From the NCBI RefSeq assembly GCF_009729855.1, contig NZ_WODA01000025.1:744001-808000 (forward strand): a stretch of 64,000 nucleotides of DNA. Direction: 5' to 3'. Source of the stretch: Agromyces luteolus (GTDB lineage Bacteria; Actinomycetota; Actinomycetes; Actinomycetales; Microbacteriaceae). Below, one piece after another: positions 1 through 64,000 of this stretch. Each line of letters starts with the position of its first letter. Position 1 is the first letter of the stretch. Below the pieces are notes generated by a model that saw nothing but the letters and a program-made list of their open reading frames with translations, did not search any database and was not told where the DNA came from. Made by a program: the position numbers and the translations under genes.

Positions 1-253
1 GCCGGCCGCGCGGCGCGGCCTCGCGTCCCACCGCCACGCGGGCGACGGGCGACGCCAGCTCCGCCACGAGCACGGCTCGCGCGCGTCCCAGCGCGTCGCG
101 CCAGGCCTCCGCCGCGCCGCGGCCCTCGGCGTCGGGATAGCGCGACGGATGCCGCAGCCACAGCTCTCGCTGGTAGGCGGCGTCGATCAGCTCGAGCGAC
201 AGCGGCGCATCGGGCGGGATCTGGAGGGTCGTGCGTGCGGCGATCGGGTCCAC
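1..253 (-). CDS. J-domain-like hypothetical protein, N-terminal part only
   Basis: The frame opens with GTG at 253 and reads through the left edge of the window, so only the first 84 residues are visible. Residues 17-60 read as a short helix pair with LRHPSRYPDAEGR between them, and the following EAWRDALGRARAVL resembles the last helix of a J-domain. The usual HPD tripeptide would here be HPS, so normal DnaK stimulation is doubtful. The remainder is off the window. The family is an inference from the local pattern only. A neighbouring ATG at 264 lies in another frame with no protein-like sequence. Confidence 0.55.
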   Translation of the reverse strand, partial: MDPIAARTTLQIPPDAPLSLELIDAAYQRELWLRHPSRYPDAEGRGAAEAWRDALGRARAVLVAELASPVARVAVGREAAPRGR

Positions 254-431
254 AGCGCGATCATAGGGACGACCGCCGATGCGCGGCATCCGGTGGACGC
301 CCCGCGCGTGCACCCGAGACGGGATCGATACGTCCTGATCGGGCTGCTGCTGCTCTGCACCCGCGGGGCGAACGAGTTCCTCCGCCGTCGACCGCGGCGG
401 ACGCATGCCGCCCGGCGCATGCGTGTTCGCA

Positions 432-437
432 TAGGGT
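432..437 (+). promoter_or_regulatory. -10 box TAGGGT for the acyltransferase gene
   Basis: TAGGGT ends 6 nt before the ATG at 444, so transcription would start at or next to the start codon (leaderless mRNA). A short inverted repeat, CGCATGC at 402-408 and GCATGCG at 417-423, lies just upstream and could be an operator. Confidence 0.4.
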
Positions 438-443
438 TGCCGG

Positions 444-1037
444 ATGCTCCGACGACTCGCCTCCCGCGTCTACTGGGCCTTCAGCAGGTGGTCGCTCGCG
501 GGCGAGGCCGCACCGGGCCGGCCGTCCGTGCTGATCGGCGCCCCGCACACGTCGAACTGGGACTTCGTGCTGATGCTCGCCATCGCCTGGCACTACGGCA
601 TCGACGTCCGCTGGCTCGGCAAGAAGAGCCTGTTCCGCGGATGGCGCGGCCCGATCATGCGACGCCTCGGCGGCATCCCCGTCGACCGCGACGACCCGAG
701 TCGCGTCGTCGGCGAGGTCGTGGGTCGGATCCGGGCGGGCGAGGTGTTCGGCCTCGTCGTGACGCCGGACGGCACGCGCGGCTCGAACGCGTACTGGAAG
801 TCGGGCTTCTACCGCATCGCCCGGGAGACGGGCATGCCGGTGACGCTCGGGTTCGTCGACCGCACGACGATGACGACGGGCCTCGGCCCGACGTTCGAAC
901 TCACGGGCGACGTGGCCTCCGACATGGACCGCATCCGGGCGTTCTACGCCGACAAGGCGGGCGTGCGCCCCGAGCTGCGCACGGAGCCCCGCCTGCGGAA
1001 CGAGCCGAGCGACGACGCCACGGCCGGACTCGGCTGA
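444..1037 (+). CDS. 1-acyl-glycerol-3-phosphate acyltransferase-like (PlsC family)
   Basis: A 197-residue protein of the PlsC/LPLAT fold, expected to transfer an acyl chain to a lysophosphatidate-type acceptor at the membrane face. The catalytic HX4D motif is visible as HTSNWD (H35, D40), and the substrate-phosphate motif as TPDGTRG near residues 108-114 (EGTR in most relatives). A GGIPVDRD block lies between them, as is usual. The protein is shorter than typical PlsC (about 240) and has no obvious membrane helix, which fits the small 1-acylglycerol-phosphate acyltransferases annotated in actinobacteria. The exact acceptor cannot be told. It stands alone, with the dodecin gene convergent on its 3' side. 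Confidence 0.8.
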   Translation: MLRRLASRVYWAFSRWSLAGEAAPGRPSVLIGAPHTSNWDFVLMLAIAWHYGIDVRWLGKKSLFRGWRGPIMRRLGGIPVDRDDPSRVVGEVVGRIRAGEVFGLVVTPDGTRGSNAYWKSGFYRIARETGMPVTLGFVDRTTMTTGLGPTFELTGDVASDMDRIRAFYADKAGVRPELRTEPRLRNEPSDDATAGLG

Positions 1038-1100
1038 CATCCGACCGGCCGACGCCCGGTCGGGCCGGCCGCCCGGCTCGGCCCTCCGCCGCCCCGCGTC

Positions 1101-1310
1101 CTACTCCTCGAGTCGGAACCCGACCTTCAGCGTGACCTGGAAGTGCGCGACCCCGCCGTCCTCCACGACGCCCCGGGTCGAGACGACCTCGAACCAGTCG
1201 ACGTGACGCAACGTCGAGGTCGCTCGCGCGATGGCGTTGCGGATGGCGGTGTCGGTGCCCTCCGGCGAACTCCCGACGATCTCGGTGACTCGGTAGACGT
1301 GATCGCTCAT
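1101..1310 (-). CDS. Dodecin family flavin-binding protein
   Basis: A 69-residue protein starting [18 protein letters not shown] and ending [13 protein letters not shown], the full length and both signature ends of dodecins. Dodecins assemble as hollow dodecamers that store flavins or related cofactors in the cytoplasm. W39 in HVDWFEV is the aromatic residue that stacks on the flavin in this family. The gene is monocistronic: it converges with the acyltransferase gene and lies about 95 bp downstream of the membrane-protein gene on the same strand. Confidence 0.9.
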
Positions 1311-1405
1311 GTGCCTCGGCTCCCCCTCCCGCACCGGCGCGGGATGCCTCGACCCTAGCCGCATCGCCGGGGCGCCGACAGGTCGGCCGGTCGCGCGCGT
1401 GCGGG

Positions 1406-2755
1406 CTATCCCATGGAGAAGTCGAGTCGCTCGTCGGCGACCGCGACGACCGACCACGCACCGCCGTCGGAGTCCGTGAACTCGAACGCCGGGACGACCA
1501 GCACGCTGCCGTCGGGCTGCCATTGGCTCGCGAGTCCGAGCCGTGCCTCGACGATGTCGACGTCGTTCACCGGCCACGAGAGCGGGGTGCCGGCCGACGG
1601 GACGGCCGGCGGGTCGGTCGGCGGCACCCACTCCGCGACCTCGTCGCTCGCCTGCTCGCGCACCGCGAAGGGCATGATCGTCATCTGCGCGCCGAACCGG
1701 GGGTCCGAGAGCCGTTCGAACGCCTCCTGCTCGCTGACGACCGGGTAGTCGCCGAGCGGAACGAGCTCGGCGAGCGCGCCGTACGCGCTGTACAGGCCGT
1801 CGTCCGTGACCTCGACCGACCAGCCGGTGTCGATGCGCTGCCCGTCGACCACCGGCCACGCGGAGGCCGTGCGCGTCACCGCGCCCTCCCACGTCTCGGA
1901 GGAGAACTCGTACGCGCCCGGGTCGCGGCCCGCCGACGCGAGCAGGTCGCGCAGCGCGTCGATCGCGGCATCCTCGCTCGGGATGTCGCCGGACGGCTCG
2001 CACACGTCGGCGCCCTCCTCGCACATCCACGGGTCCAGGCCCGGGTCGGAGTACGAGAAGCTCATCGTGCCGTCGAGCGACACCCACAGCGTCGGCGCGG
2101 TGCCGTCCTGCGGGCCCACGGTCCACGCGCCGTCGGCGAGCACGGGCTCCCCCGCGACGCCGAGCGCCGCGGCGAGCGCCGCGATCGTGCCGGGGTCGGA
2201 TGCCGCGGGCGCGTCGAACGCGTACGCGGCGGCCGTGCCGGCGGTGGTCGACAGCCCGTCGGCGTGGAAGGCGTTGCGGCCGAAGCCGTAGGGGTACGAC
2301 AGGTCGGCGGCGCCCGGTCCGGCCATCCGCTGGTCGACCGCCCCGGGTTCGACGAGGCTCCCCTCGAGCGCCCCGGCGCCGGCCTGCCCCTGCAGCGAGA
2401 TCGGCGGGGCGGCGGCGTCCGCGAGGTTCGCCGGCTGCCCGGTCGCCGCCCCGACGCCGTATCCGACGGCGCCGACGACGGCGAGCGAGGCCGCGACCGC
2501 GGCCACCGGAATCCACCGCGGCCGGCGGCGCGTGCGCTCGGCCCCGAGGTCGGCGACCGGCGGCCGGGCGGATGCCGCGGCATCCGTCGTCTCGGGCTCG
2601 GCCACGGGCGATGCCGCGCCGGCGGTCTCGGCCGCGACGCGCGCGACGACCTCGTCGGCGAAGCCCTCGCGCGGCTCGATGCCCGCGGCCGGGTCGGCGG
2701 CGCGCAGCTCCTCGATCGGATCGCGGCGGTCCTCGTCGTCGCCCATCTCGCTCAC
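1406..2755 (-). CDS. Single-pass membrane protein, likely anti-sigma partner
   Basis: A 449-residue protein with an acidic cytoplasmic N-terminus, an arginine cluster (RTRRRPRW) before one membrane helix at about residues 81-104, and a large extracytoplasmic part rich in Ala, Gly, Ser and Asp. It follows a sigma-factor gene on the same strand after 68 bp, the usual place for an anti-sigma factor. The short N-terminal part ([17 protein letters not shown]) resembles the small intracellular segment of actinobacterial anti-sigma-like proteins, but there is no HxxxCxxC zinc motif. The outer domain has two cysteines close together (about residues 250-258) and otherwise matches nothing I recognise. 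GTG start at 2755 with upstream GGAAGG; ATG at 2746 is an alternative. Confidence 0.6.
2569..2586. repeat. Perfect palindrome CGGATGCCGCGGCATCCG
   Basis: An 18-bp perfect palindrome made of GGATGCC and its complement GGCATCC joined head to head. It lies inside the coding region of the membrane protein, in the linker before the membrane helix. Identical copies occur at 17537-17554 and 28049-28066, also in low-complexity linkers. Confidence 0.85.
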
Positions 2756-2823
2756 CCTCGTTCGCCTTCCTGCCGGACTGTCTCACCCATGCATGTGTGC
2801 CCGGACGGCGGAACCTTGCAGGA

Positions 2824-3354
2824 CTAGAACGACAGGCGCTCGCCCCACGCGTCGCGGAGGCGCTTGCGGGCTCGCGAGAGCGCGGCATCCGCCCCGGATC
2901 GGGAGATGCCGAGCACCTGCGCGAGGGCCTCGCCGTCGAGGCCCTCCCACGCGTGGAGCAGGATGATGCGCCGGTCGCGTTCGCCGATGCTCTCCAGCGC
3001 GCCTCGGAGTTCGGCGTCGAAGAGCACGCTGAGCTCCGGATCCTCGTCGACGCGCGAGGTGCCCGCGTCGGGCACGTGCTCGACCGGGAGGTCGACGAGC
3101 TTGCGGCGGTGGTTGGCGAGCGTGAAGCCCGCCGTGCGGTACAGCCACGGCAGCACCGCCTCGCGCGGGACGTCGTCGCGTCGACGCCAGGCCGTCGCGA
3201 AGACCTCGGCGGCGAGGTCCTCGGCGTCCTGGCGCGGACCGCGCCGTGCGAAGTACTTCACGAGCGCGGTCGAGTGCTCGTGCACGACGCCCGTGAACCA
3301 CTCGAGTCCGTCGTCGCGCGCCGTCATCGCAGGCGGTTCCGCGGCGTCGGGCAT
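2824..3354 (-). CDS. RNA polymerase sigma factor, sigma-70 family (ECF type)
   Basis: A 176-residue protein with only regions 2 and 4. Region 2 spans about residues 20-85 ([19 protein letters not shown], then [17 protein letters not shown]), and region 4 about 115-170 ([22 protein letters not shown], then the helix-turn-helix [19 protein letters not shown]). It should direct RNA polymerase to a small regulon. The start is ATG at 3354 because AGGGGGT precedes it; the open frame extends further upstream, and ATG at 3327 has no Shine-Dalgarno sequence. The next gene on the strand encodes a membrane protein that is the probable regulator. I could not identify target promoters in the window. Confidence 0.9.
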
Positions 3355-3730: not shown

Positions 3731-3756
3731 GATCCAGCGCGAGGAAGCGGTGCGAC

Positions 3757-4081: not shown

Positions 4082-4660
4082 TCACGCGAGCGCGGGCGAG
4101 GCGAGGAACGCCCTCACGCGCTCCATGAGCAGGGCGGATGCCTCGGGGTCGTACGCGTCGAGCGAGGAGTCGGCGAAGAGGTGCTGGTCGCCCGGGTAGA
4201 GGAAGAGCTCGGCATCGTGCGTGGAGGCGACGAGTTCGCGTGCCGCGGGCAGGTCCTCCTCGAAGAACTCGTCGCCCTCCTTGCCGTGTATCTGCACCGG
4301 CACGCCATCCGGCCACGCTTCGCCGAACTCGGAGACGGGGATGCAGGAGTAGAGCAGCAGGGCGCCCCGGGCACCCGGTCGCGTCTGCGCGAGCCCCTGG
4401 GCGATCATCACGCCGAACGAGAACCCGGCGTAGACGAGCCCCTCGCCGAGTTCGTCGGCCGCGGCGCGGCCGAGTTCCGAGAGGGCGTCGAAGCCCGTGT
4501 CTCGCACGAACGCGGATCCCTCCTCGATGCTGGCGAAGGTACGACCGTCGAACAGGTCGGGCGTATGCACGACATGGCCCTCCCGTCGCAGCTCGTCGGC
4601 GAAGGCCCGCACCCCGTCGGTCAGGCCCTGGATGTGGTGGAACAGCAGCACTTCGGCCAT
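4082..4660 (-). CDS. Dienelactone hydrolase family protein
   Basis: A 192-residue alpha/beta hydrolase. The nucleophile elbow is GFSFG with Ser81, where classical dienelactone hydrolases have Cys. The acid is probably Asp130 (HGKEGDEFF) and the base His160 (PGDQHLF), all in the right order and spacing for the family. It is expected to be a soluble hydrolase for a small ester or lactone; the substrate is unknown. It is transcribed divergently from the ArsR-type regulator gene at 4728, and an imperfect inverted repeat lies in the 67-bp gap, so control by that regulator is likely. Confidence 0.85.
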   Translation of the reverse strand: MAEVLLFHHIQGLTDGVRAFADELRREGHVVHTPDLFDGRTFASIEEGSAFVRDTGFDALSELGRAAADELGEGLVYAGFSFGVMIAQGLAQTRPGARGALLLYSCIPVSEFGEAWPDGVPVQIHGKEGDEFFEEDLPAARELVASTHDAELFLYPGDQHLFADSSLDAYDPEASALLMERVRAFLASPALA

Positions 4661-4727: not shown

Positions 4728-5291
4728 ATGGCGGACAACCCCCCGGACTACGAGCTGGCGGATCGGATCGTGCTGACCCGGCCGGCCCAGGTGCGGGCCA
4801 TCGGCCATCCGCTCCGCACGACGATCCTGCAACTCCTCCACGAGCGGGCCGCCACGGTCACCGAGCTCGCGACCGCCGTCGAACGCCCCAGGAGCACGGT
4901 CGCGCACCACGTCGACGTGCTGGCGAGGAACGGGCTGCTCCGGGTCGTTCGGACGCGGAAGGTGCGCGCGATCGAGGAGCGCTTCTACGGCCGGACCGCC
5001 CGCATGTTCACGATCGCCCTCGAGCACCCGTCCGGGAACCATGCCGCGACGGGTGATTTCAACGACTTCGAGGTGGCGGCGCGCGAATCCGCGGGCGCCT
5101 TCGAACAGGGTCGGCTCTGGGGGTTCATCCGCCACGGACGCATCTCGGAGGAGCAGGCCTCGACGTTCTGGGAACGGATGGCCGAGCTGGTCGACGAATT
5201 CGACCGGATGCCGCGCGCGGGCGACACCACGTACGGGTTCGCCATCGGCATCTACCCGACGGACCACCCGAGGCTGCCGCCGGCCGAGTGA
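4728..5291 (+). CDS. ArsR-type winged-helix transcriptional regulator
   Basis: A 187-residue protein with an N-terminal winged helix at about residues 20-95: IGHPLRTTILQLLHERAATV, the recognition region RPRSTVAHHVDVLARNGLL, and the wing with VRTRKVRAIEERFYGRTAR. The C-terminal half is an alpha-helical region without metal-binding cysteines, so it probably senses something other than arsenite. It starts at the end of a repeat-rich promoter region, with the dienelactone-hydrolase-like gene divergent. The pairing suggests a repressor of that hydrolase; ligand unknown. Confidence 0.8.
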   Translation: MADNPPDYELADRIVLTRPAQVRAIGHPLRTTILQLLHERAATVTELATAVERPRSTVAHHVDVLARNGLLRVVRTRKVRAIEERFYGRTARMFTIALEHPSGNHAATGDFNDFEVAARESAGAFEQGRLWGFIRHGRISEEQASTFWERMAELVDEFDRMPRAGDTTYGFAIGIYPTDHPRLPPAE

Positions 5292-5308: not shown

Positions 5309-6382
5309 CTACACGTTGAAGCGGAACTCCACGACGTCGCCGTCCTGCATGACGTAGTCCTTGCCCTCCATGCGGGCCTTGCCCTTGGCGCGCGCCTCGG
5401 CGACCGAGCCCGTCTCGACGAGGTCGTCGAACGAGATGACCTCGGCCTTGATGAAGCCCTTCTCGAAGTCGGTGTGGATGACGCCGGCCGCCTGCGGGGC
5501 CTTCCAGCCCTTGCGGATGGTCCAGGCGCGCGACTCCTTCGGGCCGGCGGTGAGGTAGGTCTGCAGGCCCAGCGTGTCGAAGCCGACACGGGCGAGCTGG
5601 TCGAGGCCCGACTCCTCCTGGCCGGTCGAGGCGAGCAGCTCCGCGGCATCCGCCGGGTCGAGGTCGATGAGCTCCGACTCGATCTTGGCGTCGAGGAAGA
5701 CCGCCTCGGCGGGCGCGACGAGTGCGGCGAGCTCCGCCTTGCTGGCGGCATCCGTCAGCACCGCCTCGTCGACGTTGAAGACGTAGATGAACGGCTTCGC
5801 CGTGAGCAGGCCGAGCTCGGCGATCGGCGAGATGTCGACCTTCGAGGCCGACAGCGGCGTGCCCTTCTGGAGCTCCTCCTGCGCCTCCTTCGCCGCGGCG
5901 AGCACCGACGGGTCGAGCTTCTTCGCCTTGACCTCCTTCTCGTAGCGCGTGATGGCGCGCTCGAGGGTCTCGAGGTCGGCGAGGATCAGCTCGGCGTTGA
6001 TCGTCTCCATGTCGTTCTTCGGGTCGACCTTGCCGTCGACGTGCACGACGTCGGAGTCCTCGAAGCCGCGGACGACCTGCGCGATCGCGTCGGCCTCGCG
6101 GATGTTCGCGAGGAACTTGTTGCCGAGGCCCTCGCCCTCGGAGGCGCCCTTCACGATGCCCGCGATGTCGACGAACGACACGGCCGCGGGCAAGATGCGC
6201 TCGGAGCCGAAGATGCCGGCGAGCGTCTCGAGTCGGGGGTCGGGCAGGTTCACCACGCCGATGTTCGGCTCGATCGTCGCGAACGGGTAGTTCGCGGCGA
6301 GCACCGTGTTCTTGGTGAGGGCGTTGAAGAGGGTCGACTTGCCGACGTTCGGGAGTCCGACGATTCCGATGGTGAGTGCCAC
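5309..6382 (-). CDS. ychF: Redox-regulated, ribosome-binding ATPase YchF (Obg family)
   Basis: A 357-residue protein, full length for the family. Motifs: P-loop GLPNVGKST (residues 9-17), switch region with [19 protein letters not shown], a coiled-coil insert around residues 125-170, the G4-like block NVDEA replacing NKxD (typical of YchF, which prefers ATP), and a C-terminal TGS-type domain ending [14 protein letters not shown]. It binds ribosomes and affects translation and oxidative-stress responses in other bacteria. GTG start at 6382. It lies 11 bp downstream of the EamA transporter gene on the same strand. Confidence 0.96.
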
Positions 6383-9633: not shown

Positions 9634-9758
9634 CGCCCACCCCCGGATGCCGCCCACCGGACATTCCACGCCACGCGGGCACGCGCGTCAATGGCCGGGG
9701 CGCGCGGCGCGCCGGTCCGGTCGTCGGGGGCGTCGGCGGCGCGTGCGAGGATGCGGCC

Positions 9759-16231: not shown

Positions 16232-16284
16232 GCGTCAATCCTGCCGCGCGAGCCGCGGCATCCGGCACCCCTTGCGAATCGCAC

Positions 16285-21978: not shown

Positions 21979-22036
21979 CGCCGCCGGCGGCATCCCACCG
22001 CCGCGCCGCACGTTCCGAATCGAAGGGGAGCACACC

Positions 22037-23452: not shown

Positions 23453-23479
23453 GCCCGCGGCATCCGCTCGCCCCTGACG

Positions 23480-40950: not shown

Positions 40951-40968
40951 CATAGGCTGTCGTCTATG
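40951..40968. promoter_or_regulatory. ArsR-type operator overlapping the start of the fusion gene
   Basis: CATAGGC (40951-40957), TGTC, GTCTATG (40962-40968). It has the same layout and nearly the same bases as the operator at 41934-41951. The -10 box TAGGCT (40953-40958) lies inside it and the right arm includes the ATG start codon, so bound repressor would block initiation directly. Confidence 0.7.
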
Positions 40969-50391: not shown

Positions 50392-50573
50392 GCGTCCCAT
50401 TCTTCCAGCAGCGGATGCCGCGTCCCGACCGCGGCACGGAACGGCCGGCGGCCCCGAGCGGCCGCGCCATCCGGATGAGGTTCTCCACATCCTGCGCGTT
50501 CCTCGGCCGTGCGTGGTCGCCGCGCCGCTAGGCTCGCGTCTCGTCGGCGCCGCGCCGACCCGAGGGAGGTCGG

Positions 50574-54766: not shown

Positions 54767-57700
54767 GGGGGCGGCCGCGGATGCGGTCGCCGCTTCCGCG
54801 GGGAAGATCACGCCGATCAGGTTCGACACCCACTGGATGAGGTCGGCGTCGCCCGGCGCCTCGCCGCCCGGCGTCGGGAACGGCACCAGGATCACGTCGT
54901 TCTGCGGGAACAGCTTCGCGCCCGGGTACATGCGCTCGAGCCGCACGCGACGCGAGTCGGGGAGCTTCGCCGGCGCGATGCGCAGCTTCGATCCCGTCGC
55001 GATGACGTCCGAGAGCCCTGCGAGCTGCGCCGTCCGGCGCAGGCGCGAGACCGCCACGAGGTGCTCGACCGCTTCGGGCAGCTCGCCGTAGCGGTCGACC
55101 AGCTCCTCGACGACGAGGTCGATCTGGCCGTCCTTCGCGGCGGGCCCGCTCGCGGCCGAGAGCTTCTGGTAGGCCTCGAGTCGCAGCCGCTCGCTGTCGA
55201 CGTAGTCCTCGGGGATGTGCGCGTCGACCGGCAGCTCGAGCCGCAGCTCGGTCTGCCCCTCCGCCACGTCGCCGCGGAACGCGTTCACGGCCTCGCCGAT
55301 CATGCGCAGGTAGAGGTCGAAGCCGACGCCCGCGATGTGCCCGGCCTGCTCGGCCCCGAGCAGGTTGCCCGCACCGCGGATCTCGAGGTCCTTCAGCGCG
55401 ACCTGCATGCCGCTGCCGAGCTCGTTGTTCGCGGCGATCGTGGAGAGTCGGTCGTGCGCGGTCTCGGAGAGCGGCTTGGCAGGGTCGTACAGGAAGTAGG
55501 CGTACGCGCGCTCGCGCCCGCGCCCGACGCGGCCGCGGAGCTGGTGCAGCTGCGAGAGGCCGTACTTGTCGGCCCGGTCGACGATGATCGTGTTCGCGTT
55601 CGAGATGTCGAGGCCCGTCTCGATGATCGTCGTCGAGACGAGCACGTCGAACTTGCGCTCCCAGAAGTCGACGACGATCTGCTCGAGCACGTGCTCGTTG
55701 AGCTGGCCGTGCGCGACCGCGATGCGGGCCTCGGGCACGAGCTCGGCGAGCTGCGCCGCGACCCGGTTGATCGACGAGACGCGGTTGTGCACGAAGAACA
55801 CCTGGCCCTCGCGGAGCATCTCACGACGGATGGCAGCGGCCACCTGCTGGTCGGAGTGCGGACCGACGAACGTGAGGATCGGGTGCCGGTCCTCGGGCGG
55901 AGTCGCGAGCGTCGACATCTCGCGGATGCCGGTGACGGCCATCTCGAGCGTGCGCGGGATCGGCGTCGCGCTCATCGCGAGGATGTCGACGTTGGTCTTG
56001 AGCTTCTTCAGCTGGTCCTTGTGCTCGACGCCGAAGCGCTGCTCCTCGTCGATGATCATGAGGCCCAGGTCCTTGAACACGACCTTCTCGGTGAGGATCC
56101 GGTGCGTGCCGATGACCATGTCGACGGTGCCGTCCGCGAGGCCCGCGACGGTCTCGCGGACCTCCTTGTCGGTCTGGAACCGGCTGAGCGCGCGCACGTG
56201 CACCGGGAACCCGGCGAACCGCTCGGAGAAGGTCTCGAGGTGCTGCCGGACGAGCAGCGTGGTCGGCACGAGCATCGCGACCTGCTTGCCGTCCTGGATG
56301 GCCTTGAACGCCGCGCGCACGGCGACCTCGGTCTTGCCGAAGCCGACGTCGCCCGCGAGCAGGCGGTCCATCGGGATGGGCCGCTCCATGTCGGCCTTGA
56401 CCTCGTCGATGGTCTGCAGCTGGTCGGGCGTCTCGGCGTAGGGGAACGCCTCCTCCAGCTCGTGCTGCCAGGGCGTGTCCTGGCCGAACGCGTGGCCCTT
56501 GGCCGCCATCCGCGCCGAGTAGAGCTTCACGAGCTCGACGGCGATGTCGCGCACGGCCTTGCGGGCGCGCGACTTGGCCTGCGACCAGTCGCTGCCGCCC
56601 ATCTTCGACAGGCTCGGCGCCTCGCCGCCCACGTAGCGGCTCAGCAGGTCGAGCTGGTCCATCGGCACGTAGAGGCGGTCGCCGGCCTGTCCGCGCTTGG
56701 ATGGCGCGTACTCGAGCACGACGTACTCGCGCACGGTCGTCGGCGCCTGCCGGATGCCCGCGGTGCGGCTCGGCCCGGTCGGCCGGGCGCCGGCGGCGAC
56801 CTCGCGCTGCACGAGCTCGACGAAGCGGCCGATGCCGTGCGTCGAGTGCACGACGTGGTCGCCGGCCTTCAGCTGCAGCGGGTCGACCACGTTGCGCCGA
56901 CGGCTCGCGAGCTTCTTCACCTGACGCGTGTCGTACCCGGCCGAGCGACCGTAGAACTCGGCCTCGGCGATGAGCCCGAGCTTCGCCTCGGGCACCTCGA
57001 AGCCGGCCGCGGCCTGCGCCTGCACGAGGAATGCGACGCCCGGTTCGAGCTCGTCGGGCACCGACTCGACGATGCGGCCGGCGAGCCCGTGCTCGGCGAG
57101 CACGTCGCGCGCGCGCTCGACGAGCCCGTGTCCGGCGGCCGCGACGACGAGGCTCCAGCCGTCGCGCAGGCGTTCGCCGACGTGCGCCACGGCGCCCTCC
57201 ACGTTGCCCTGGAAGCTCGGCACGGTCGCCGCCGCGACGCGCACGTACGAGGCATCCGCCCCGCCCGCGGTCTCGCCGACGGCCTCGGCCGCGTCGCCCT
57301 GGTCGAAGCTCGAGAACGTCCACCACACCCGGTCGGGATCGGGCGAGCCGGGCGCGCTGAACAGCACCGACTCGCGCAGCGCGCGGAGGGTCAGGAAGTC
57401 GCCCGCGGCGAGGTCGATGGGGGCCGCGGCACCCGCGGTCGCGGCATCCCACGCCGCCGCGAGGAACTCGCGGTTCGTCTCGCCGAGGCTCACCGCGCGG
57501 CCGGCGACGCGCTCGGGCCCGACGACCGCGACCGCTGCACCCTCGGGCAGGTAGGAGGTGACGGGCACGAGCCGCTCGAGCAGCGCCGGCGCGAGCGATT
57601 CCATGCCCTCGACCGGGATGCCCTCGGCGATGCGCTCGAGCAGACCTGCGAGGTTGGGGAACTCGTGCACCATCTCGCGGGCGCGCTGGCGCACCGGCTC

Positions 57701-58426
57701 GGTGAGCAGCAGCTCGCGGCTCGGCGCGAGGAGGACCCGCTCGACCCGGTCGGGCAGCGAGCGCTGGTCGGCGACCGAGAATGCGCGCAGCTCCTCGACC
57801 TCGTCGCCGAAGAAGTCGACGCGCACCGGGTGGTCGGCGGTCGGCGGGAAGACGTCGAGGATGCCGCCGCGGACGGCGAACTCGCCGCGGCGCGAGACCA
57901 TGTCGACGCGCGCGTACGCGAGGTCGACGAGCCGCACCGCGAGGTCGGACAGGTCGTGGCCGCGGCCGCCCGCGGCGAGCTCGATCGGCGCGAGGTCGGC
58001 GAGGTTGTCGGCGACGGGCTGCAGGGCGGCGCGCACCGAGGCGACGACGACGAGCGGATGGCTCGTGCCCTCGGCGCTCCACGCCGCCATCCGGCGGATC
58101 GCGTGGAGGCGACGCCCGACCGTCTCGGCGCTCGGGCTGAGCCGCTCGTGCGGCAGCGTCTCCCACGCGGGGAACTCGAGGATCTCGGCGTCGTCGAGGT
58201 AGGGCGCGAGCGCGGTGCGGAGCGATTCGCCCTCGCGGCTCGTCGCGGTGACGACGAACAGCACGGGCGGGTGGCCCTCGGCCGCGCGCCGGCCGAGCAG
58301 GCCCGCGAGGAGCGGCGCGTCGAGCCCGGAGGGCGCGGAGAAGTCGGCGTTCCGCTCGGCCTCCGCGAGGGCTCGATCGATCGTGGAGGCGCGCGAAAGC
58401 GCCGTGTTCAAGCCCTGCAGGATCAC
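54758..58426 (-). CDS. mfd: Transcription-repair coupling factor Mfd
   Basis: A 1222-residue ATPase that removes stalled RNA polymerase and recruits UvrA. Domains in order: UvrB-like N-terminal part (FVVTATSREGESL, WETLPHERLSP, GGILDVFPPTADHPVRVDFFGDEVEE), a linker, the polymerase-interacting domain (LKAGDHVVHSTHGIGRF), and the RecG-like motor with Walker A AGDVGFGKTEVAVRAAF, DEEQ box MIIDEEQRFGVEHK and TATPIPRTLEMA-like motif III; then motifs IV-VI and the C-terminal TRCF domain. TAGACT ends 6 nt before the GTG start, so it is probably leaderless. About 50 kb of conserved neighbours match the mycobacterial order. Confidence 0.98.
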   Translation of the reverse strand: MILQGLNTALSRASTIDRALAEAERNADFSAPSGLDAPLLAGLLGRRAAEGHPPVLFVVTATSREGESLRTALAPYLDDAEILEFPAWETLPHERLSPSAETVGRRLHAIRRMAAWSAEGTSHPLVVVASVRAALQPVADNLADLAPIELAAGGRGHDLSDLAVRLVDLAYARVDMVSRRGEFAVRGGILDVFPPTADHPVRVDFFGDEVEELRAFSVADQRSLPDRVERVLLAPSRELLLTEPVRQRAREMVHEFPNLAGLLERIAEGIPVEGMESLAPALLERLVPVTSYLPEGAAVAVVGPERVAGRAVSLGETNREFLAAAWDAATAGAAAPIDLAAGDFLTLRALRESVLFSAPGSPDPDRVWWTFSSFDQGDAAEAVGETAGGADASYVRVAAATVPSFQGNVEGAVAHVGERLRDGWSLVVAAAGHGLVERARDVLAEHGLAGRIVESVPDELEPGVAFLVQAQAAAGFEVPEAKLGLIAEAEFYGRSAGYDTRQVKKLASRRRNVVDPLQLKAGDHVVHSTHGIGRFVELVQREVAAGARPTGPSRTAGIRQAPTTVREYVVLEYAPSKRGQAGDRLYVPMDQLDLLSRYVGGEAPSLSKMGGSDWSQAKSRARKAVRDIAVELVKLYSARMAAKGHAFGQDTPWQHELEEAFPYAETPDQLQTIDEVKADMERPIPMDRLLAGDVGFGKTEVAVRAAFKAIQDGKQVAMLVPTTLLVRQHLETFSERFAGFPVHVRALSRFQTDKEVRETVAGLADGTVDMVIGTHRILTEKVVFKDLGLMIIDEEQRFGVEHKDQLKKLKTNVDILAMSATPIPRTLEMAVTGIREMSTLATPPEDRHPILTFVGPHSDQQVAAAIRREMLREGQVFFVHNRVSSINRVAAQLAELVPEARIAVAHGQLNEHVLEQIVVDFWERKFDVLVSTTIIETGLDISNANTIIVDRADKYGLSQLHQLRGRVGRGRERAYAYFLYDPAKPLSETAHDRLSTIAANNELGSGMQVALKDLEIRGAGNLLGAEQAGHIAGVGFDLYLRMIGEAVNAFRGDVAEGQTELRLELPVDAHIPEDYVDSERLRLEAYQKLSAASGPAAKDGQIDLVVEELVDRYGELPEAVEHLVAVSRLRRTAQLAGLSDVIATGSKLRIAPAKLPDSRRVRLERMYPGAKLFPQNDVILVPFPTPGGEAPGDADLIQWVSNLIGVIFPAEAATASAAAPAS

Positions 58427-58531: not shown

Positions 58532-59245
58532 ATGATCATCGCCGCCGCCGACGGCTCGGCCCTCGGCAATCCCGGCCCGGCGGGCTGGGCCTGGTACGTC
58601 TCCGACGACTGCTGGGCGGCGGGCGGGTGGCCCCGCGCGACGAACAACCAGGGCGAGCTGACCGCGGTCCTCGAGCTGTTCCGCGCGACCGCGCACCTCG
58701 ACGACGAGCTGCTCGTGCAGTGCGACAGCCAGTACGTGATCAACTCGGTGACGAAGTGGATGGCCGGCTGGAAGCGCAAGGGCTGGCGCAAGGCCGACGG
58801 ATCGCCCGTCCTGAACCGCGAGCTGCTCGAACAGCTCGACGCCGCGATCGCCGGGCGCCGCTACCGCTTCGAGTGGGTCCGCGGCCATGTCGGCCACCCC
58901 ATGAACGAGGCCGCCGACGAGCGTGCCCGAGCGGTCGCCGAGGCCTATCGCCGCGGCGAGGACGTCCCGACCGGGCCCGGTTGGGTCGGCGACTGCGAAC
59001 CGGCGACGGATGCCGCGGTCGCCGCGGTCCCCGTCGAGTCGGCGGCATCCGAGCCGGCCGTACCGGCCGCGGCCGCCCTCGCCGACCGCGAGACCGAGGA
59101 CGCGGCCCTCTTCGACTTCGACGAGCCCGAGGCGGACTGGCGCACCCTGTCACTCGAGCTGACCACCGAGGAGCACACGAGGCTCGTCGAGCGCGCCCGC
59201 GCCGCCGGCCTCACTCCCGAGGAGTTCCTGCGCGGGCTCATCTAG
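58532..59245 (+). CDS. rnhA: Ribonuclease HI with C-terminal extension
   Basis: A 237-residue protein. Residues 1-145 are a complete RNase HI: D7 (AAADGSALGNPGPAGWAWY), E42 (NNQGELTAVLELF), D65 (VQCDSQYVINSV), H119 (VRGHVGHPMNEAADE) and D129. It cuts RNA in RNA-DNA hybrids. Residues 146-237 are an extra region: a variable Ala/Glu linker, then an acidic stretch and TLSLELTTEEHTRLVERARAAGLTPEEFLRGLI, which looks like a small ribbon-helix-helix-type unit. GGAAGGACC precedes the ATG. It diverges from mfd. Confidence 0.93.
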   Translation: MIIAAADGSALGNPGPAGWAWYVSDDCWAAGGWPRATNNQGELTAVLELFRATAHLDDELLVQCDSQYVINSVTKWMAGWKRKGWRKADGSPVLNRELLEQLDAAIAGRRYRFEWVRGHVGHPMNEAADERARAVAEAYRRGEDVPTGPGWVGDCEPATDAAVAAVPVESAASEPAVPAAAALADRETEDAALFDFDEPEADWRTLSLELTTEEHTRLVERARAAGLTPEEFLRGLI

Positions 59246-59335: not shown

Positions 59336-60883
59336 TCACTCCGAGAGCGCGTAGACGGTCACCGGGTCCCGCTTGCCCTTGATCCGCACGTCCGTCAGCA
59401 CCCGGGCGCGAAGGTCCGACTCCCCGTCGACCGCCCGGTAGGTCTCGGCGCTCACGAGGATCGGGGCGCCGACCTCCTTGGTCTTGTCCTCCAGCCGGGC
59501 GGCGAGGTTGACGGCATCCCCCATCACCGTGTACTCGATGCGCTCCCGGCCGCCGATGTTGCCGGCGATGACCGGCCCGGTCGCGATGCCGATCCCGGCT
59601 TCGAGGCGCGGGAGTCCGTCCAGGGTCTCCCGGACGTTGAAGGCCTCCAGCGCCCGGCGCATTCCGATCGCGGTCCGCACCGCTCGGCCGGCATGATCGG
59701 CCATCGGGTTCAGCGGCGTGCCGAAGACCGCCATGACGGAGTCCCCGCCGAAGCGGGTGACGACGCCCCCGTGTTCGACGACGACCGACACCATGGCGGT
59801 CATGTACCGGTTGATCACGTCGACGAGCCGCCCGGGCGGCAGCTGCTCGCTGAGCGTCGTGAAGTCGCGGATGTCCGAGAATACGACCGAGCAGTCGACC
59901 AGCGTTCCCCCGAGACCGGCCCCGGTCTCCACGGCGGCCCGGGCCACCTCGCGGCTGACGTAGAGGCCGAACAGCTCCCGCAGGCGCTCACCCTGGCGCA
60001 GTCCGTCCGTCATGACGTTGAACCGCTCGCCCAGGTATCCGAGCTCGTCGTTGGTGGTCACCACGGTCCTCGTGTCGAGCTCGTCGTCCTCGACGCGACC
60101 CATCGCCGCCTGCAACGCCTGCAGCGGACCCACGATGGCTCGCGCGACCAGGGCGGCCGTGATCACGCCGGTGACCAGGCCGACTCCCAGGATGAACAGC
60201 TGCACCACGAGGAGGTTGTCGAGGATCGCCTGCGGGTTCTCGGCGTCGAGCACGGCTCGCGTGCGCGCCTGGGTCAGCACCACGAGGAGGGTGGGCGCGA
60301 GCCCGCCGATCAGCGCGAAGGCGATCAGCAGGCGCCTCCGAACGAGCAGCCGGAAGGCGCGGACGGCGCTCAGCCTGCCGTCGGGGAAGAAGGCGGGGAC
60401 CTGCTGCCGCCAGATCAGGTCGGTGCCGAAGTAGACGATGGTCGTCCCGACCGCGCCGCCGATGGCGATGCCGACGAAGTTGCCCGGATCGTCGTACAGG
60501 ATCGAGAAGAACACGGCCGCGAGGAGGCTGCCCGCGGCGACGAGCGACGCGCCGACGAGGGGCCAGATCAGGACCAGGCGTGCGACGTTCGGCGGCAGCT
60601 CCGACGGGGGCGTGCCGGACTCGATCCTGCGCAGCCAGCTCCGGATCGGGCGTCCGAGCCAGACGACCATCGCGATCGCACCGACGAGGAGCAGTGCGCC
60701 CACGATCGCGAACGTCACGAGGCCTCCGGGGTCGAGCGAACGGACCGCCGCGTCGTCGACGGGCATCGGATCGATCAACGAGAAGTAGAGGAAGACGATC
60801 AGGGCTCCGAGGACGGTCGCTGCGGTGATGAGCGTCGCGACCCTGCGGGAGATCTCCCGCGACGACGGCGGTGGCGTGCTCAC
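59336..60883 (-). CDS. Membrane adenylate cyclase, class III, with HAMP domain
   Basis: A 515-residue protein. Six membrane helices occupy about residues 15-275. A HAMP segment (ARAIVGPLQALQAAMGRVEDDELD) leads into a class III cyclase domain: metal site VFSDIRDFTTLSEQL, VTRFGGDSVMAVFGTPL with the second metal Asp, and EYTVMGDAVNLAARLED with transition-state residues. Layout matches the mycobacterial Rv1318c-Rv1320c group. It should make cAMP in response to a membrane signal. GTG start at 60883. The pth gene lies 42 bp upstream on the same strand. Confidence 0.92.
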   Translation of the reverse strand: MSTPPPSSREISRRVATLITAATVLGALIVFLYFSLIDPMPVDDAAVRSLDPGGLVTFAIVGALLLVGAIAMVVWLGRPIRSWLRRIESGTPPSELPPNVARLVLIWPLVGASLVAAGSLLAAVFFSILYDDPGNFVGIAIGGAVGTTIVYFGTDLIWRQQVPAFFPDGRLSAVRAFRLLVRRRLLIAFALIGGLAPTLLVVLTQARTRAVLDAENPQAILDNLLVVQLFILGVGLVTGVITAALVARAIVGPLQALQAAMGRVEDDELDTRTVVTTNDELGYLGERFNVMTDGLRQGERLRELFGLYVSREVARAAVETGAGLGGTLVDCSVVFSDIRDFTTLSEQLPPGRLVDVINRYMTAMVSVVVEHGGVVTRFGGDSVMAVFGTPLNPMADHAGRAVRTAIGMRRALEAFNVRETLDGLPRLEAGIGIATGPVIAGNIGGRERIEYTVMGDAVNLAARLEDKTKEVGAPILVSAETYRAVDGESDLRARVLTDVRIKGKRDPVTVYALSE

Positions 60884-60925: not shown

Positions 60926-61555
60926 CTACGCCGGCGAGTGGAAGCGCTGCTGCGCCGCCACGAGCCCGTGCTCGACGACGGCCTCGACCGCGTCCGCGGC
61001 ATCCGACAGCAGGTTCGGGAGGGCCGCGCGCTCGGGGCCGGCGAAGTCGCGCAGCACGTAGTCCGCGGCATCCATGCGACCCGGCGGGCGGCCGATGCCG
61101 ACGCGCACGCGCGTGAAGTCGGGCGAACCCGCGGCCTTCTGGATGTCGCGCAGCCCGTTGTGGCCGCCGTGGCCGCCGCCGAGCTTCAGGCGCACGGTGT
61201 CGAACGGGATGTCGAGCTCGTCGTGCACCACGACCAGGCGGTCGGCGCCGAGCGAGTAGAACTTCAGCAGCGCCGAGACCGGCCCGCCGGAGGTGTTCAT
61301 GTAGCTGTTGGGCTTCGCGAGCACGAGCTTCGGCCGGCCGGGGCCGAGGAAGCCCTCGGCGACGCGCGAGGCCGTCTTGTGGCTCTTGAAGGTCGCGCCG
61401 ATGCGCGCGGCGAGCTCGTCGGCGACCATCTGGCCGACGTTGTGCCGGTTGCCGGCGTACTGCGCGCCGGGGTTGCCGAGGCCGACCACGAGCCAGGTGT
61501 TGTCGGACACGACCTCGTCCTTCCGGCGGTGCAGGAGGCGGTCGATGAGGTTCAC
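60926..61555 (-). CDS. pth: Peptidyl-tRNA hydrolase
   Basis: A 209-residue enzyme that frees tRNA from dropped peptidyl-tRNA. Motifs: [22 protein letters not shown] with catalytic His, [13 protein letters not shown] (Asn), [31 protein letters not shown] (Asp). GTG start at 61555 with GGAGG upstream; a second in-frame GTG (VSDNTW) also has GGAAGGACGAGG before it and would give a 194-residue form of more usual length. It follows the bL25 gene on the same strand, as in mycobacteria. Confidence 0.96.
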
Positions 61556-61662
61556 GGATGCCTCCGGGCTGGGGTTGGTGGGAACGGCGGAGGGCCCGCG
61601 GCCCCGCGATCCGAGCGTACCCGGATGCGGCGCCGCGGACCCTCGCGACGAAGCGGGATCGA

Positions 61663-62304: not shown

Positions 62305-62370
62305 GGTGATGGCTCCTTGCGGGCTCGCGGCCCAGAGTGGGTTTTCCGTTGTGTCAACTCGAACGCCCGG

Positions 62371-62386
62371 GGCTGCGCGCGCAGCC
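62371..62386. repeat. Perfect palindrome GGCTGCGCGCGCAGCC upstream of rplY
   Basis: A 16-bp perfect palindrome in the region between the divergent bL25 and prenyltransferase genes, upstream of the possible bL25 -35 box. Operator or structural element; no regulator is known to me. Confidence 0.6.
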
Positions 62387-62541
62387 AGCGTGAGGAACAG
62401 CCGTGAGTCTGATTCCACCGCGTCGATAACGGATGCCGCACCGGGACGAACCCGGCTCCGGCGGCATCCCTCGCCGAAGTTCAATGGGTCAGTCTACCGG
62501 ATGCCGCGGCCCGCTCGATGCGATGTGAGAGCATCGAGGCT

Positions 62542-63384
62542 GTGAGCACCCCGGGGGCGCTGTGGCGGTCGTCGCACCCCGGACCGACGTCGATCGTCAC
62601 CGCGCTCGCGTTGGCGCTCGGCTGGTCGGCCGGGCTCGATCCGGCCCGCATCGCGCTGCTCGCGCTCGCGGTGTTCGCGGGCCAGCTCTCGGTCGGCATC
62701 TCCAACGACGCGATCGACGCCCCGCGCGACCGTGCCGCGTCGCGGCCCGACAAGCCGATCGCGCGGGGCGAGGTGAGCCTCCGCGTCGCCTGGGGTGCGG
62801 CCCTGGCCGCGCTGGCATCCGCCCTGGTGCTCTCGGCACTGCTCGGCTGGGCGACGCTCGCAGCGCACGCGCTCGCCCTCGGGTCGGCGTGGGCGTACAA
62901 CGTCCGGCTCAAGTCGACGGCGGCTTCGATCGTCCCGTTCCTCGTGAGCTTCGGGATCTTCCCGAGCCTCGCGACGCTCTCGGCGCCGCAGCCCGCCGTC
63001 GCCCCGCCGTGGGCCTGGATCGCCGGCGCCGCGTTCGGCGCGGCCGTGCACCTGACGAACGTGCTGCCCGACCTCGAGCAGGATGCCGCGACCGGCGTCC
63101 GCGGCCTTCCGCACCGCTGGGGCCCGAGGGCGGCGACGTCGGTCGCGGCCGGAGCCGTCGTCGTCGGCGCCGTGGTCGCCCTCGTCGGATCGGCGGGCGG
63201 CGAGTGGTCGAGGGTCTCCCCGGTCTCGTGGGCGTGCTTCGCCGGGGTCGTCGCGGTCGCGACCGCGACGCTGGCCGCGGCGTTCCTGCGGCCCCCGTCG
63301 CGCAGGCTCTTCCGGCTCGTGATGCTGGCCGCGCTGCTCCTGGCCGCCCAGGTCGTCGCTGCCGGCCGGGTGCTCGCGGACTGA
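62542..63384 (+). CDS. UbiA-family prenyltransferase
   Basis: A 280-residue membrane protein with about eight to nine helices. The first Asp-rich motif is NDAIDAPRDRAASRPDKPIARG, the second NVLPDLEQDAATG. Both are needed for Mg-diphosphate binding. UbiA enzymes attach an isoprenoid chain to an aromatic or other acceptor, e.g. in menaquinone, heme O or decaprenylphosphoryl-ribose synthesis. It is shorter than MenA, and no quinone genes are adjacent, so the acceptor is open. GTG at 62542 is chosen since the family starts here with a short hydrophilic stretch (STPGALWRSSHP); the frame is open further upstream. Confidence 0.85.
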   Translation: MSTPGALWRSSHPGPTSIVTALALALGWSAGLDPARIALLALAVFAGQLSVGISNDAIDAPRDRAASRPDKPIARGEVSLRVAWGAALAALASALVLSALLGWATLAAHALALGSAWAYNVRLKSTAASIVPFLVSFGIFPSLATLSAPQPAVAPPWAWIAGAAFGAAVHLTNVLPDLEQDAATGVRGLPHRWGPRAATSVAAGAVVVGAVVALVGSAGGEWSRVSPVSWACFAGVVAVATATLAAAFLRPPSRRLFRLVMLAALLLAAQVVAAGRVLAD

Positions 63385-63408
63385 TCCGATCGGAGCGGGA
63401 GAGGGCGC

Positions 63409-64000
63409 TCAGAACATCGACGGGACGGGCCGGTCGGGGTAGAGCTCCTGCATCGCGCGGTCGTACCGGCGCTTCATCAGGAGGAGGTAGAGCAGGCGGA
63501 TCGGCGCGGGGACGTTCGCGTGGTACCACTCGTCGCGCTCGGCCTCGGGAACGCTCGCGAGGAGCAGGCCGAGCTGCAGCGACAGCACGTCCCGCGGGAA
63601 GTCGCGGCGCCGCGCCAGGAGGGTCTTCCGCGTGTGCGCTTCGAGCTGGTCCCACTCCTGCTGGGACATCACCGCGCCGGCGACCGGGAGGATGTCGTCC
63701 TCCTCGTTGCCGAGGTGCACGAGGAGCGTGTCGCGGAGGAACTCGATGTCGCCGGCGAACGCGTCGCGGAGGCCGGCATCGGCCGCCTCGAGCCAGGGGT
63801 CGAGCTGGGGCTCGATCCGGGCGAGCTGCGAGGCGACCTCGGCATGCTGCGCTCGCATGAGTTCCACGTGCACGGCGCAACCCGGCTCGCGAGCGGCGAG
63901 TCGGTCCCACAGCACGGTGTCCTCGGTGCGGTGGTGCAGGTGCAGCGCGAAGAAGTCGAGCTTCGCGTAGATCCCGACGACGCCGGCGCGTTCGACGTCG
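63409..64000 (-). CDS. Hemerythrin-domain protein, 5' end beyond the window
   Basis: The frame runs through the right edge, so the N-terminus is missing; about 196 residues are visible. Metal-binding positions of the four-helix hemerythrin HHE fold appear as LDFFALHLHHRTEDTVLW, AQHAEV, and LLVHLGNEEDDILP. The C-terminal half is an extra helical region with two Trp (QQEWDQLE, RDEWYHANVP). Actinobacterial members bind a di-iron centre and may respond to O2, NO or oxidants. An internal GTG at 63915 is not the start because the HHE pattern continues upstream of it. Confidence 0.85.
   Translation of the reverse strand, partial: DVERAGVVGIYAKLDFFALHLHHRTEDTVLWDRLAAREPGCAVHVELMRAQHAEVASQLARIEPQLDPWLEAADAGLRDAFAGDIEFLRDTLLVHLGNEEDDILPVAGAVMSQQEWDQLEAHTRKTLLARRRDFPRDVLSLQLGLLLASVPEAERDEWYHANVPAPIRLLYLLLMKRRYDRAMQELYPDRPVPSMF

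What the first reader, a model, noticed from the sequence alone, without database searches (positions are those of the whole stretch)
1..64000. Strongly over-represented word GGATGCC/GGCATCC that overrides codon preference
By eye I count about 83 copies of GGATGCC or its complement (about 40 and 43 in the two orientations). At roughly 72% GC, independent bases predict about 15. Copies are spread over the whole window, mostly inside genes and often in linkers. In frame they read GAT-GCC (Asp-Ala) or GCA-TCC (Ala-Ser), although GAC, GCG/GCC and TCG dominate elsewhere. Three copies are identical 18-bp palindromes (2569, 17537, 28049). Equal orientation use argues against a polar chromosome guide. 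A DNA-level role (uptake word, methylation target, recombination or nucleoid site) is inference; the count is direct. The word contains GGATG and GCATC, both known restriction-modification targets.
Basis: partly seen in the sequence, partly recalled or inferred. Interest (0 to 1): 0.72.

Follow-up and report, generated by a model that had tools for sequence, protein, structure and literature searches.

The report
Genome-wide repeated word in Microbacteriaceae
A seven-letter DNA word occurs about 5,000 times in this bacterium's genome and is abundant in much of its family, overriding normal codon choice, being swapped for a related word in some relatives and carried at the same density by a few phages of a related genus, which points to an unrecognised protein that reads it.

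Summary
GGATGCC occurs 88 times in the window (shuffle mean 13.8) and 4,987 times in the 3.9-Mb genome, against 306 reversed. The organism is an Agromyces. Synonymous shuffling gives 20.1 +/- 2.9 for the window's genes against 76; all six frames are enriched. The word is abundant in much of Microbacteriaceae and near background in 136 of 139 sampled genomes of other families in the order. In six of 199 family genomes CGGATCC is abundant instead or as well. Words in non-preferred codons are kept better than codon-matched controls. Six of nine sampled Microbacterium phages lack the enrichment; three related small phages carry it at host density. No methyltransferase of three families explains both words, though Type I/IIG enzymes were not tested. 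Polarity and regular spacing are absent. I commit to a self-DNA word read by a DNA-end-processing complex, Chi-like (0.35). Uptake, nucleoid and methylation/repair readings remain open; the reader protein is unknown.

The parts
2569..2586 (.). 18-bp palindrome, two converging words (2570-2576 +, 2579-2585 -)
17537..17554 (.). 18-bp palindrome, two converging words
28049..28066 (.). 18-bp palindrome, two converging words
147..153 (+). word
285..291 (-). word
672..678 (-). word
1342..1348 (+). word
1967..1973 (-). word
2198..2204 (+). word
2884..2890 (-). word
4136..4142 (+). word
5206..5212 (+). word
5645..5651 (-). word
5747..5753 (-). word
7066..7072 (+). word
7672..7678 (+). word
8494..8500 (+). 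word
8533..8539 (-). word; converging with 8494
9526..9532 (+). word
9645..9651 (+). word
12633..12639 (-). word
13287..13293 (+). word
13891..13897 (-). word
14599..14605 (-). word
16257..16263 (-). word
19087..19093 (-). word
19321..19327 (+). word
19840..19846 (-). word
19930..19936 (+). word
20887..20893 (-). word
21989..21995 (-). word
23459..23465 (-). word
23654..23660 (+). word
23880..23886 (+). word
25750..25756 (+). word
26054..26060 (+). word
26571..26577 (+). word
29843..29849 (+). word
30311..30317 (-). word
30541..30547 (+). word
31040..31046 (+). word
33634..33640 (-). word
34004..34010 (-). word
37339..37345 (-). word
37722..37728 (-). word
38335..38341 (+). word
38839..38845 (+). 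word
38892..38898 (-). word
39452..39458 (+). word
40137..40143 (-). word
40546..40552 (-). word
40968..40974 (+). word
44412..44418 (-). word
44874..44880 (+). word
45931..45937 (-). word
46323..46329 (+). word
48213..48219 (-). word
49105..49111 (-). word
49219..49225 (+). word
49830..49836 (+). word
50143..50149 (+). word
50413..50419 (+). word
50812..50818 (+). word
52776..52782 (-). word
52972..52978 (+). word
53204..53210 (-). word
53286..53292 (-). word
54373..54379 (-). word
55924..55930 (+). word (inside mfd, 54758-58426 -)
56752..56758 (+). word (inside mfd)
57251..57257 (-). word (inside mfd)
57443..57449 (-). word (inside mfd)
57616..57622 (+). word (inside mfd)
57859..57865 (+). 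word (inside mfd)
59008..59014 (+). word; converging with 59044
59044..59050 (-). word
59513..59519 (-). word
60998..61004 (-). word
61067..61073 (-). word
61556..61562 (+). word
62431..62437 (+). word; intergenic, converging with 62463
62463..62469 (-). word, intergenic
62499..62505 (+). word, intergenic
62814..62820 (-). word
63081..63087 (+). word

Best explanation
GGATGCC is the core of a longer motif, about (R)CGGATGCC followed by a base other than C, that marks the chromosome as self. It is maintained by selection at the DNA level in much of Microbacteriaceae. The reading I commit to is a Chi-like one: a host complex that processes DNA ends (the candidate is AdnAB, whose two genes lie at C18:673795-680246 in this genome) reads the word in both orientations and then spares or recombines the DNA instead of degrading it. 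The resident chromosome, and small phages that depend on host tolerance, are thereby enriched in it, while a recent island and other phages are not. Shown: enrichment, codon override, conservation against codon-matched controls, substitution by GGATCC, phage distribution in nine records, absence of polarity and of regular spacing on 808 kb, no matching methyltransferase in three families.
For: DNA level and reading-frame independence. Maintained where it costs codon preference: NNG|GAT|GCC identical in G079 in 20 of 67 sites against 1 of 30 codon-matched controls (p 0.003); NNG|GCA|TCC 15 of 62 against 4 of 71 (p 0.003). Sites one synonymous step short (CGGACGCCG) are depleted to 0.61. Substitution by a related short word: CGGATCC 5,503-6,237 copies in three g35 genomes, 6,303 in G164 (whose congener G106 has 5,599 GGATGCC), 4,111 in G126, 2,871 in G151, with GGATGCC below expectation in G164, Clavibacter loci and G109. 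Three related small phages with no integrase among their annotated genes carry 19, 23 and 24 copies in 17.4 kb against about 3.7 expected, in both orientations. A word-poor, low-GC island lies at C18:465-540 kb. AdnAB-type genes were seen in G000, G079, G164 and G279, the fetched stretches that cover them (model scores below the curated cut-offs).
Against: Known Chi words are polar along the replichore (recalled); here the 56% plus-strand share in coding DNA is close to the 54% expected from gene direction alone. CGGATCC is nearly palindromic, unlike known Chi words. Flanking bases matter (8.0-fold with C before and G after, 0.2-2.2-fold in eight of nine contexts with neither), which fits a double-strand DNA-binding protein at least as well. 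Converging close pairs exceed diverging ones 31 to 7, unexplained by Chi. GGATGCC is below the shuffle expectation also in g52, which has no substitute word, so depletion by itself is no sign of a switch. Overall conservation of words is modest: 88 kept against 73.8 expected from flank identity. Mycobacterial AdnAB is not known to read Chi (recalled). AdnAB of G106 could not be fetched, so co-variation of reader and word is untested.
Confidence: 0.35

Rival explanations
1. DNA uptake word, like DUS of Neisseriaceae and USS of Pasteurellaceae: competent cells prefer word-bearing DNA, and uptake plus recombination accumulates the word.
For: Thousands of copies at about 1 per kb, no polarity; lineage dialects (R-CGGATGCC-GCG in this genome, GGATGCCTC in G079, ACGGATGC in Cryobacterium, CGGATCC in Clavibacter), as the abstract of PMC3630211 describes for DUS; converging pairs, 9 of 31 of them noncoding, some hairpin-like; poor in an island and in six of nine phages. 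Flp-pilus-dependent natural transformation is reported for Actinobacteria (title and start of abstract of PMC4322843 in the listing).
Against: Spacing is Poisson (CV 0.93, 1-kb count variance about equal to mean), whereas uptake words are recalled to be evenly spaced; three phages carry the word at host density; most core 1-mismatch variants are not enriched. Competence genes were not surveyed.
Confidence: 0.2
2. Architectural site: a nucleoid-associated or other abundant double-strand DNA-binding protein uses thousands of copies.
For: Graded flanks and inverted CGG..CCG symmetry of both words; excess of converging pairs and 58 palindromes genome-wide against about 1.6 by arithmetic from the counts; no polarity; random spacing; noncoding density 1.6 per kb.
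Against: No candidate protein tested; rapid turnover of sites (35-41% shared at 78% identity).
Confidence: 0.17
3. HIP1-like word made or kept by a methyltransferase together with biased repair.
For: Sporadic substitute word resembles alternate HIPs (PMC4390886, abstract and the first part of section 3.4 seen). GGATCC is methylated (m6A) in Arthrobacter sp. U41 (PMC5356067, read whole). None of the 22 family genomes without a strong ortholog of the orphan MTase reaches 0.9 words per kb (highest 0.78, an incomplete genome), while dozens of the 177 with it do.
Against: G277 (GGATGCC-rich), G164 and G166 (GGATCC-rich) each have one PF01555 match and none to PF02086 or PF00145. That one enzyme is also in all ten f6 genomes sampled and several f20 genomes without a strong word. 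Genus g50 (three genomes) lacks it, yet G119 has CGGATGC 110 against 36. Within genera its absence brings no drop (G163 against G031, G105; G070 against G133, G186). The conserved Arthrobacter orphan is TTAA-specific (PMC4752239 passages), and f6 genome G279 has a TTAA cluster at C1:1452-1619, but that our enzyme is the same one was not tested. Type I and IIG enzymes not tested.
Confidence: 0.17
4. By-product of codon-pair, mutation-context or base-composition bias.
For: An order-5 Markov model predicts 70 of 88 in the window and 700 of 902 on 808 kb.
Against: High orders contain the word's own parts. Orders 1-3 and codon shuffles fail; all six frames and noncoding DNA are enriched; most core one-base variants are near expectation; relatives of similar GC such as Rathayibacter and Clavibacter lack it.
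Confidence: 0.04

Closest known systems
Chi sites (RecBCD, AddAB)
   Same: Short, over-represented, chromosomal, differing between lineages; a DNA-end-processing complex (AdnAB type) is encoded here.
   Different: No polarity on the contig read; flanks matter; the substitute word is nearly palindromic; no Chi recognised for AdnAB (recalled).
DNA uptake sequences (DUS, USS)
   Same: About one copy per kb, both strands, codon override, dialects, some inverted hairpin pairs, mainly in one family.
   Different: Random spacing; carried at host density by three phages; no uptake word known in Gram-positive bacteria (recalled).
HIP1 and alternate HIPs of cyanobacteria
   Same: Thousands of copies in and between genes, function unknown, sporadic replacement by another GC-rich word.
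   Different: GGATGCC is not a palindrome and no cognate methyltransferase was found in the families tested.
Orphan TTAA methyltransferase of Arthrobacter (Blow et al. 2016)
   Same: The only amino-MTase shared by the word-rich genomes tested may be its ortholog (inference).
   Different: Its target is TTAA, not the word.

Membership tests
Chi | over-represented in the resident chromosome | tested here: met
Chi | polarity along the replichore | tested here: not met
   (one 808-kb stretch; origin not located)
Chi | attenuates a helicase-nuclease | not testable with these tools
   biochemistry needed
DUS/USS | about one per kb, both orientations | tested here: met
DUS/USS | more even spacing than random (recalled) | tested here: not met
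DUS/USS | not expected to be enriched in phages (my expectation) | tested here: not met
   6 of 9 phages near background, 3 of 9 (related to each other) enriched five- to sevenfold
DUS/USS | inverted pairs as terminators | tested here: inconclusive
   31 converging pairs within 40 bp, 9 noncoding; 7 diverging
DUS/USS | sequence-dependent uptake in competent cells | not testable with these tools
   experiment needed; competence genes not surveyed
HIP1 | palindromic word | tested here: not met
   GGATGCC is asymmetric; only the GGATCC variant is a palindrome
HIP1 | cognate methyltransferase present | tested here: inconclusive
   no clear candidate in PF01555, PF02086, PF00145 (26, 22 and 22 genomes); Type I and IIG not tested
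restriction-modification target | site methylated in the host | not testable with these tools
   no long-read kinetics available

The most novel reading that the evidence does not exclude
Microbacteriaceae use a family-wide self word with switchable dialects (GGATGCC or GGATCC) that regulates DNA degradation and recombination, the first such word for an AdnAB-type system, and a group of minimal phages evades the machinery by carrying the host's word.
Probability: 0.25. Interest if true: 0.88.

Novelty: new variant of a known kind. Interest (0 to 1): 0.7.

Why it matters
Genome-wide words have been the key to Chi, uptake and HIP systems. A strong, family-level word with natural dialect switches inside one genus, and a few phages that carry it, gives a direct comparative and experimental route to its reader in Actinobacteria, where the searches made showed no report of such a word in this family (listings; open-access papers only). 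It also matters for transforming these bacteria and for codon design.

Tried and rejected
Methyltransferase as writer of the word: attractive at first, because the only PF01555 enzyme of this genome has strong orthologs in 177 of 199 family genomes and none in word-less g52, and none of the 22 genomes without one reaches 0.9 words per kb. Set aside, not excluded, because (i) g50 lacks it and G119 keeps the word, (ii) f6 and f20 have it without a strong word, (iii) genera with a member lacking it show no drop (G163 against G031/G105; G070 against G133/G186; G100 and G161 slightly below G020; G136 above G073/G188), (iv) its target may be TTAA. Point (iv) is weak. The TTAA-triplet pattern is not above its reversed control in most of the 31 genomes, and several genomes with the enzyme (G277, G034, G109, G031, G105, G133, G186, G020, G073) show no triplet. 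The conserved TTAACACCGTTAA element was seen in G000, G079, G142, G106 and G025; only in G106 and in the f6 genome G279 does a place near a contig start suggest dnaA. No annotation was seen, and that f6 is Micrococcaceae is inference.

D12 and C5 MTases as GGATCC writers: absent or sporadic. Multi-base replacement at word sites (3 or more mismatches in 0.30-0.33 of sites against about 0.2 in flanks, one mismatch 0.15 against about 0.3): not an artefact of gaps, but at least partly explained by saturated third codon positions, so I draw no mechanism from it. GGATCC in Arthrobacter U41: its gene number suggests a plasmid gene (inference), so it was not linked to the orphan. Plasmid searches gave nothing useful. 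Discovery in G250 (f20) failed, because my codon model found no genes there. One search translated minus-strand loci on the wrong strand and was replaced.

Caveats: gene calls come from my own codon-usage finder (704 genes, 89% of 808 kb; an earlier version found 521), not a standard annotator. Only 808 of 3,901 kb of this genome was read base by base; whole-genome numbers are pattern counts. The BLAST alignments to G079 cover about 248 kb. Sites with gaps or too near an alignment end were dropped before the mismatch tables (289 aligned words; 263 and 253). Of 45 named loci sent, 44 were searched. Scamander and PaoPu are close relatives, so the three enriched phages are not independent.


Full report
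Setting. The window is G000:C18:744001-808000 of a 3,901,165-bp draft genome in 26 contigs. The closest named relatives of its Mfd protein are Agromyces bracchium, A. kandeliae and A. binzhouensis at 96-98% protein identity, so the genus is Agromyces, family Microbacteriaceae. The tool may leave the window's own record out.

The count. GGATGCC occurs 88 times in the window, 45 and 43 by orientation; 100 dinucleotide shuffles average 13.8. In the genome there are 4,987 copies against 306 of the word read backwards, about 1.28 per kb. The three 18-bp palindromes are exact; the genome has 58 of the form GGATGCCNNGGCATCC with no reversed control, where about 1.6 would be expected from the counts if copies fell independently (my arithmetic).

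Not a codon effect. I predicted genes with a codon-usage finder (704 genes on 808 kb) and shuffled synonymous codons within genes. The 808 kb hold 763 coding copies against 277 expected; the window's 63 genes hold 76 against 20.1 +/- 2.9. Enrichment is strongest where the word needs non-preferred codons: GCA-TCC 22-fold, GAT-GCC 6-fold, and also the rare Gly-Cys (5-fold) and His-Pro (8-fold) frames. It is weak where the amino acids largely force it (Gly-Ile 1.2-fold, Met-Pro 1.9-fold). 233 of 1,594 GAT codons and 198 of 1,687 GCA codons lie inside a word. Noncoding DNA is enriched too: 137 copies against 25.6 at order 2, 1.6 per kb against 1.06 in genes. In the HtrA-type motif QTDAAINPGNSGG of a gene outside the window (C18:652437-654146), this genome uses ACG GAT GCC GCG where G079 uses ACC GAC GCG GCC for the same four residues.

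The motif. Beyond the 7-bp core, C before and G after raise enrichment to 8.0-fold; one of the two gives 4.0-4.7-fold (C before with C after only 1.7) and neither 0.2-2.2-fold, except T before with A after (5.2, 16 copies). In coding 9-mers against synonymous shuffles CGGATGCCG is 5.9-fold, final A and T are 6.4 and 11-fold, final C is 0.9. Single changes inside the core fall to 0.3-2.5-fold, and changes at T are depleted (0.61-0.75), as if such sites had been consumed. Spacing along the contig is Poisson (CV 0.93 outside the island). The plus-strand share among coding words is 0.557 against 0.537 expected from gene direction, so there is no polarity on this contig. Converging pairs within 40 bp outnumber diverging ones 31 to 7, 9 of the 31 noncoding.

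Evolution. Between this genome and G079 (78% identity over aligned DNA) the word is kept at 35-41% of ungapped sites against about 27% for flanking 7-mers; by flank identity 88 of 253 are kept where 73.8 are expected, a modest excess. In frames that cost codon preference the contrast is larger: 20 of 67 against 1 of 30 matched controls for GAT-GCC, and 15 of 62 against 4 of 71 for GCA-TCC (p 0.003 each). Where the amino acids largely force the word (GGC-ATC-C), conservation equals the control (0.56 against 0.56). Sites therefore turn over, but the word is held while it is there.

Distribution. In 199 genomes of the family (85 genera) density runs from 0.08 per kb (g52) to 1.9 per kb (G057). 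Twelve of 12 named Agromyces genomes lie at 0.91-1.52 per kb; three Leifsonia, Humibacter and Compostimonas are similar; Cryobacterium, Subtercola and Herbiconiux lie at 0.6-0.95; Rathayibacter, Clavibacter, Frondihabitans and Naasia are low, at or below 0.4 (whole genomes, loci). Among 139 genomes of other families in the order, 136 are at or below 0.47 per kb and three, all of one genus (f4, g88), reach 0.66-0.68; a fourth member of that genus has 0.39.

Dialects. Where the word is missing a related one can be top-ranked. In G164, a congener of word-rich G106, GGATGCC is 31 against 66 expected but CGGATCC is 278 against 67; in three Clavibacter loci 16 against 28 and 69 against 8. Genome-wide CGGATCC exceeds 0.9 per kb in six of 199 genomes: the three of g35 (probably Clavibacter, inferred), G164, G151, and G126, where it coexists with 6,046 GGATGCC; the next highest are about 0.66. 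Sisters G106 (1,423), G057 (880), G179 (1,135), G005 (350) and G088 (386) have far fewer, so it probably arose several times. Base-by-base samples of G109, G151 and G126 agree. Loci of Naasia and Frondihabitans show about a twofold GGATCC excess. Flanks differ also: GGATGCCTC in G079, ACGGATGC in Cryobacterium. Rathayibacter and g52 show neither word, and in g52 GGATGCC is itself below expectation (10 against 27.5, 17 against 30.5).

Mobile DNA. The lower-GC stretch C18:465-540 kb has 1-4 words per 5 kb against about 6 elsewhere. Phages: Min1 16 against 12.8 expected, five phages of M. foliorum 2-9 against about 5 each (20 kb of each read), but Efeko 19 against 3.7, Scamander 23 against 3.7 and PaoPu 24 against 3.6. 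These three are related 17.4-kb Orlajensenviridae phages with no integrase among their annotated genes, although Efeko and Scamander are annotated with a transcriptional repressor. Efeko and PaoPu share 8 of 17 aligned words at 76% identity and carry both orientations. If such phages do not reside in the chromosome (inference), slow mutation there is an unlikely source, and the word would be useful to them.

Methylation. PF01555 was searched in 26 genomes, PF02086 and PF00145 in 22. The single PF01555 enzyme of this genome (C12:78192-79052) looks like an orphan: by eye no nuclease stands beside it, and a lipoate-ligase-like gene is next to it in G164 and G106 and two genes away in G000 (names recalled, not searched). 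Its profile resembles RsrI and CcrM methylases. Strong orthologs occur in 177 of 199 family genomes and, outside the family, in all ten f6 and seven of nine f20 genomes of the order sample. None of the 22 family genomes without one reaches 0.9 words per kb, so an association exists at the extreme, but it vanishes inside genera and fails in g50, f6 and f20. Passages of Blow et al. 2016 (PMC4752239) describe a conserved orphan TTAA methyltransferase of Arthrobacter with TTAA clusters at dnaA. The f6 genome G279 has a dense TTAA cluster with DnaA-box-like sequence at C1:1452-1619, and G000, G079, G142, G106 and G025 share TTAACACCGTTAA; other genomes with the enzyme show no TTAA triplet, and counts are mostly not above the control. 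TTAA occurs only 9 times in 808 kb here. That this enzyme methylates TTAA is therefore a plausible inference, no more. G277, G164 and G166 have no other methyltransferase in the three families searched.

Mechanism. A strict core with graded flanks, both orientations, random spacing, dialect switches, retention in the chromosome and presence in small phages suggest a protein that reads the word to recognise tolerated DNA. A Chi-like role is the reading I commit to, at 0.35, with AdnAB as candidate reader. AdnAB-type genes lie at C18:673795-680246 (helicase, AddA- and AddB-like models, all under their cut-offs, the second protein cut at the locus end; the name AdnAB is recalled). They are 68-71% identical in G079; in G164 38-46%, not much above the outgroup G279 at 37-38%, one of whose matches is partial. 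Without G106 this divergence cannot be interpreted. The missing polarity is the main point against Chi; random spacing and the phages are the main points against an uptake word.

Literature. The word as a whole term appears in 2 unrelated papers (listing only); with Microbacteriaceae, inside any word, in 1 review of Clavibacter that I did not open. The listings showed no report of an over-represented word in this family. Subscription papers are not covered. Papers seen: PMC4390886 abstract and first part of section 3.4; PMC5356067 whole; PMC4752239 and PMC8259958 passages; PMC8022716 and PMC3630211 abstracts; others as listings.

Noticed in passing
G000:C18:465000-540000 (outside the window): About 75 kb of lower GC (0.65-0.71), word-poor, with many low-scoring genes: a likely genomic island.
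   Followed up: partly
L269-L277 (Microbacterium phages): GGATCC is strongly avoided in eight of these nine phages (0-4 copies in 17-20 kb against about 7-16 expected), but not in Min1 (52 against 54.7).
   Followed up: no
G000:C18 (808 kb): TTAA occurs only 9 times; an orphan methyltransferase and a TTAACACCGTTAA element shared by five genomes may point to an origin-linked methylation system in this family.
   Followed up: partly
G188:C4:1444-1491: A TTAA-rich contig with what looks like a low-GC 16S rRNA fragment in a Microbacteriaceae genome: possible contamination.
   Followed up: no
L131:10001-15108: The mfd match in Cryobacterium glaciale spans about 1.4 kb more than in relatives, as if interrupted by an insertion.
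   Followed up: no
order genomes G263, G276, G331 (f4, g88): Three genomes of one genus outside Microbacteriaceae have GGATGCC at 0.66-0.68 per kb, the only such case among 139; a fourth member, G201, has 0.39.
   Followed up: no
G119/G049/G174 (g50): Genus that lacks the orphan methyltransferase yet keeps a CGGATGC word (shown in 120 kb of G119).
   Followed up: partly
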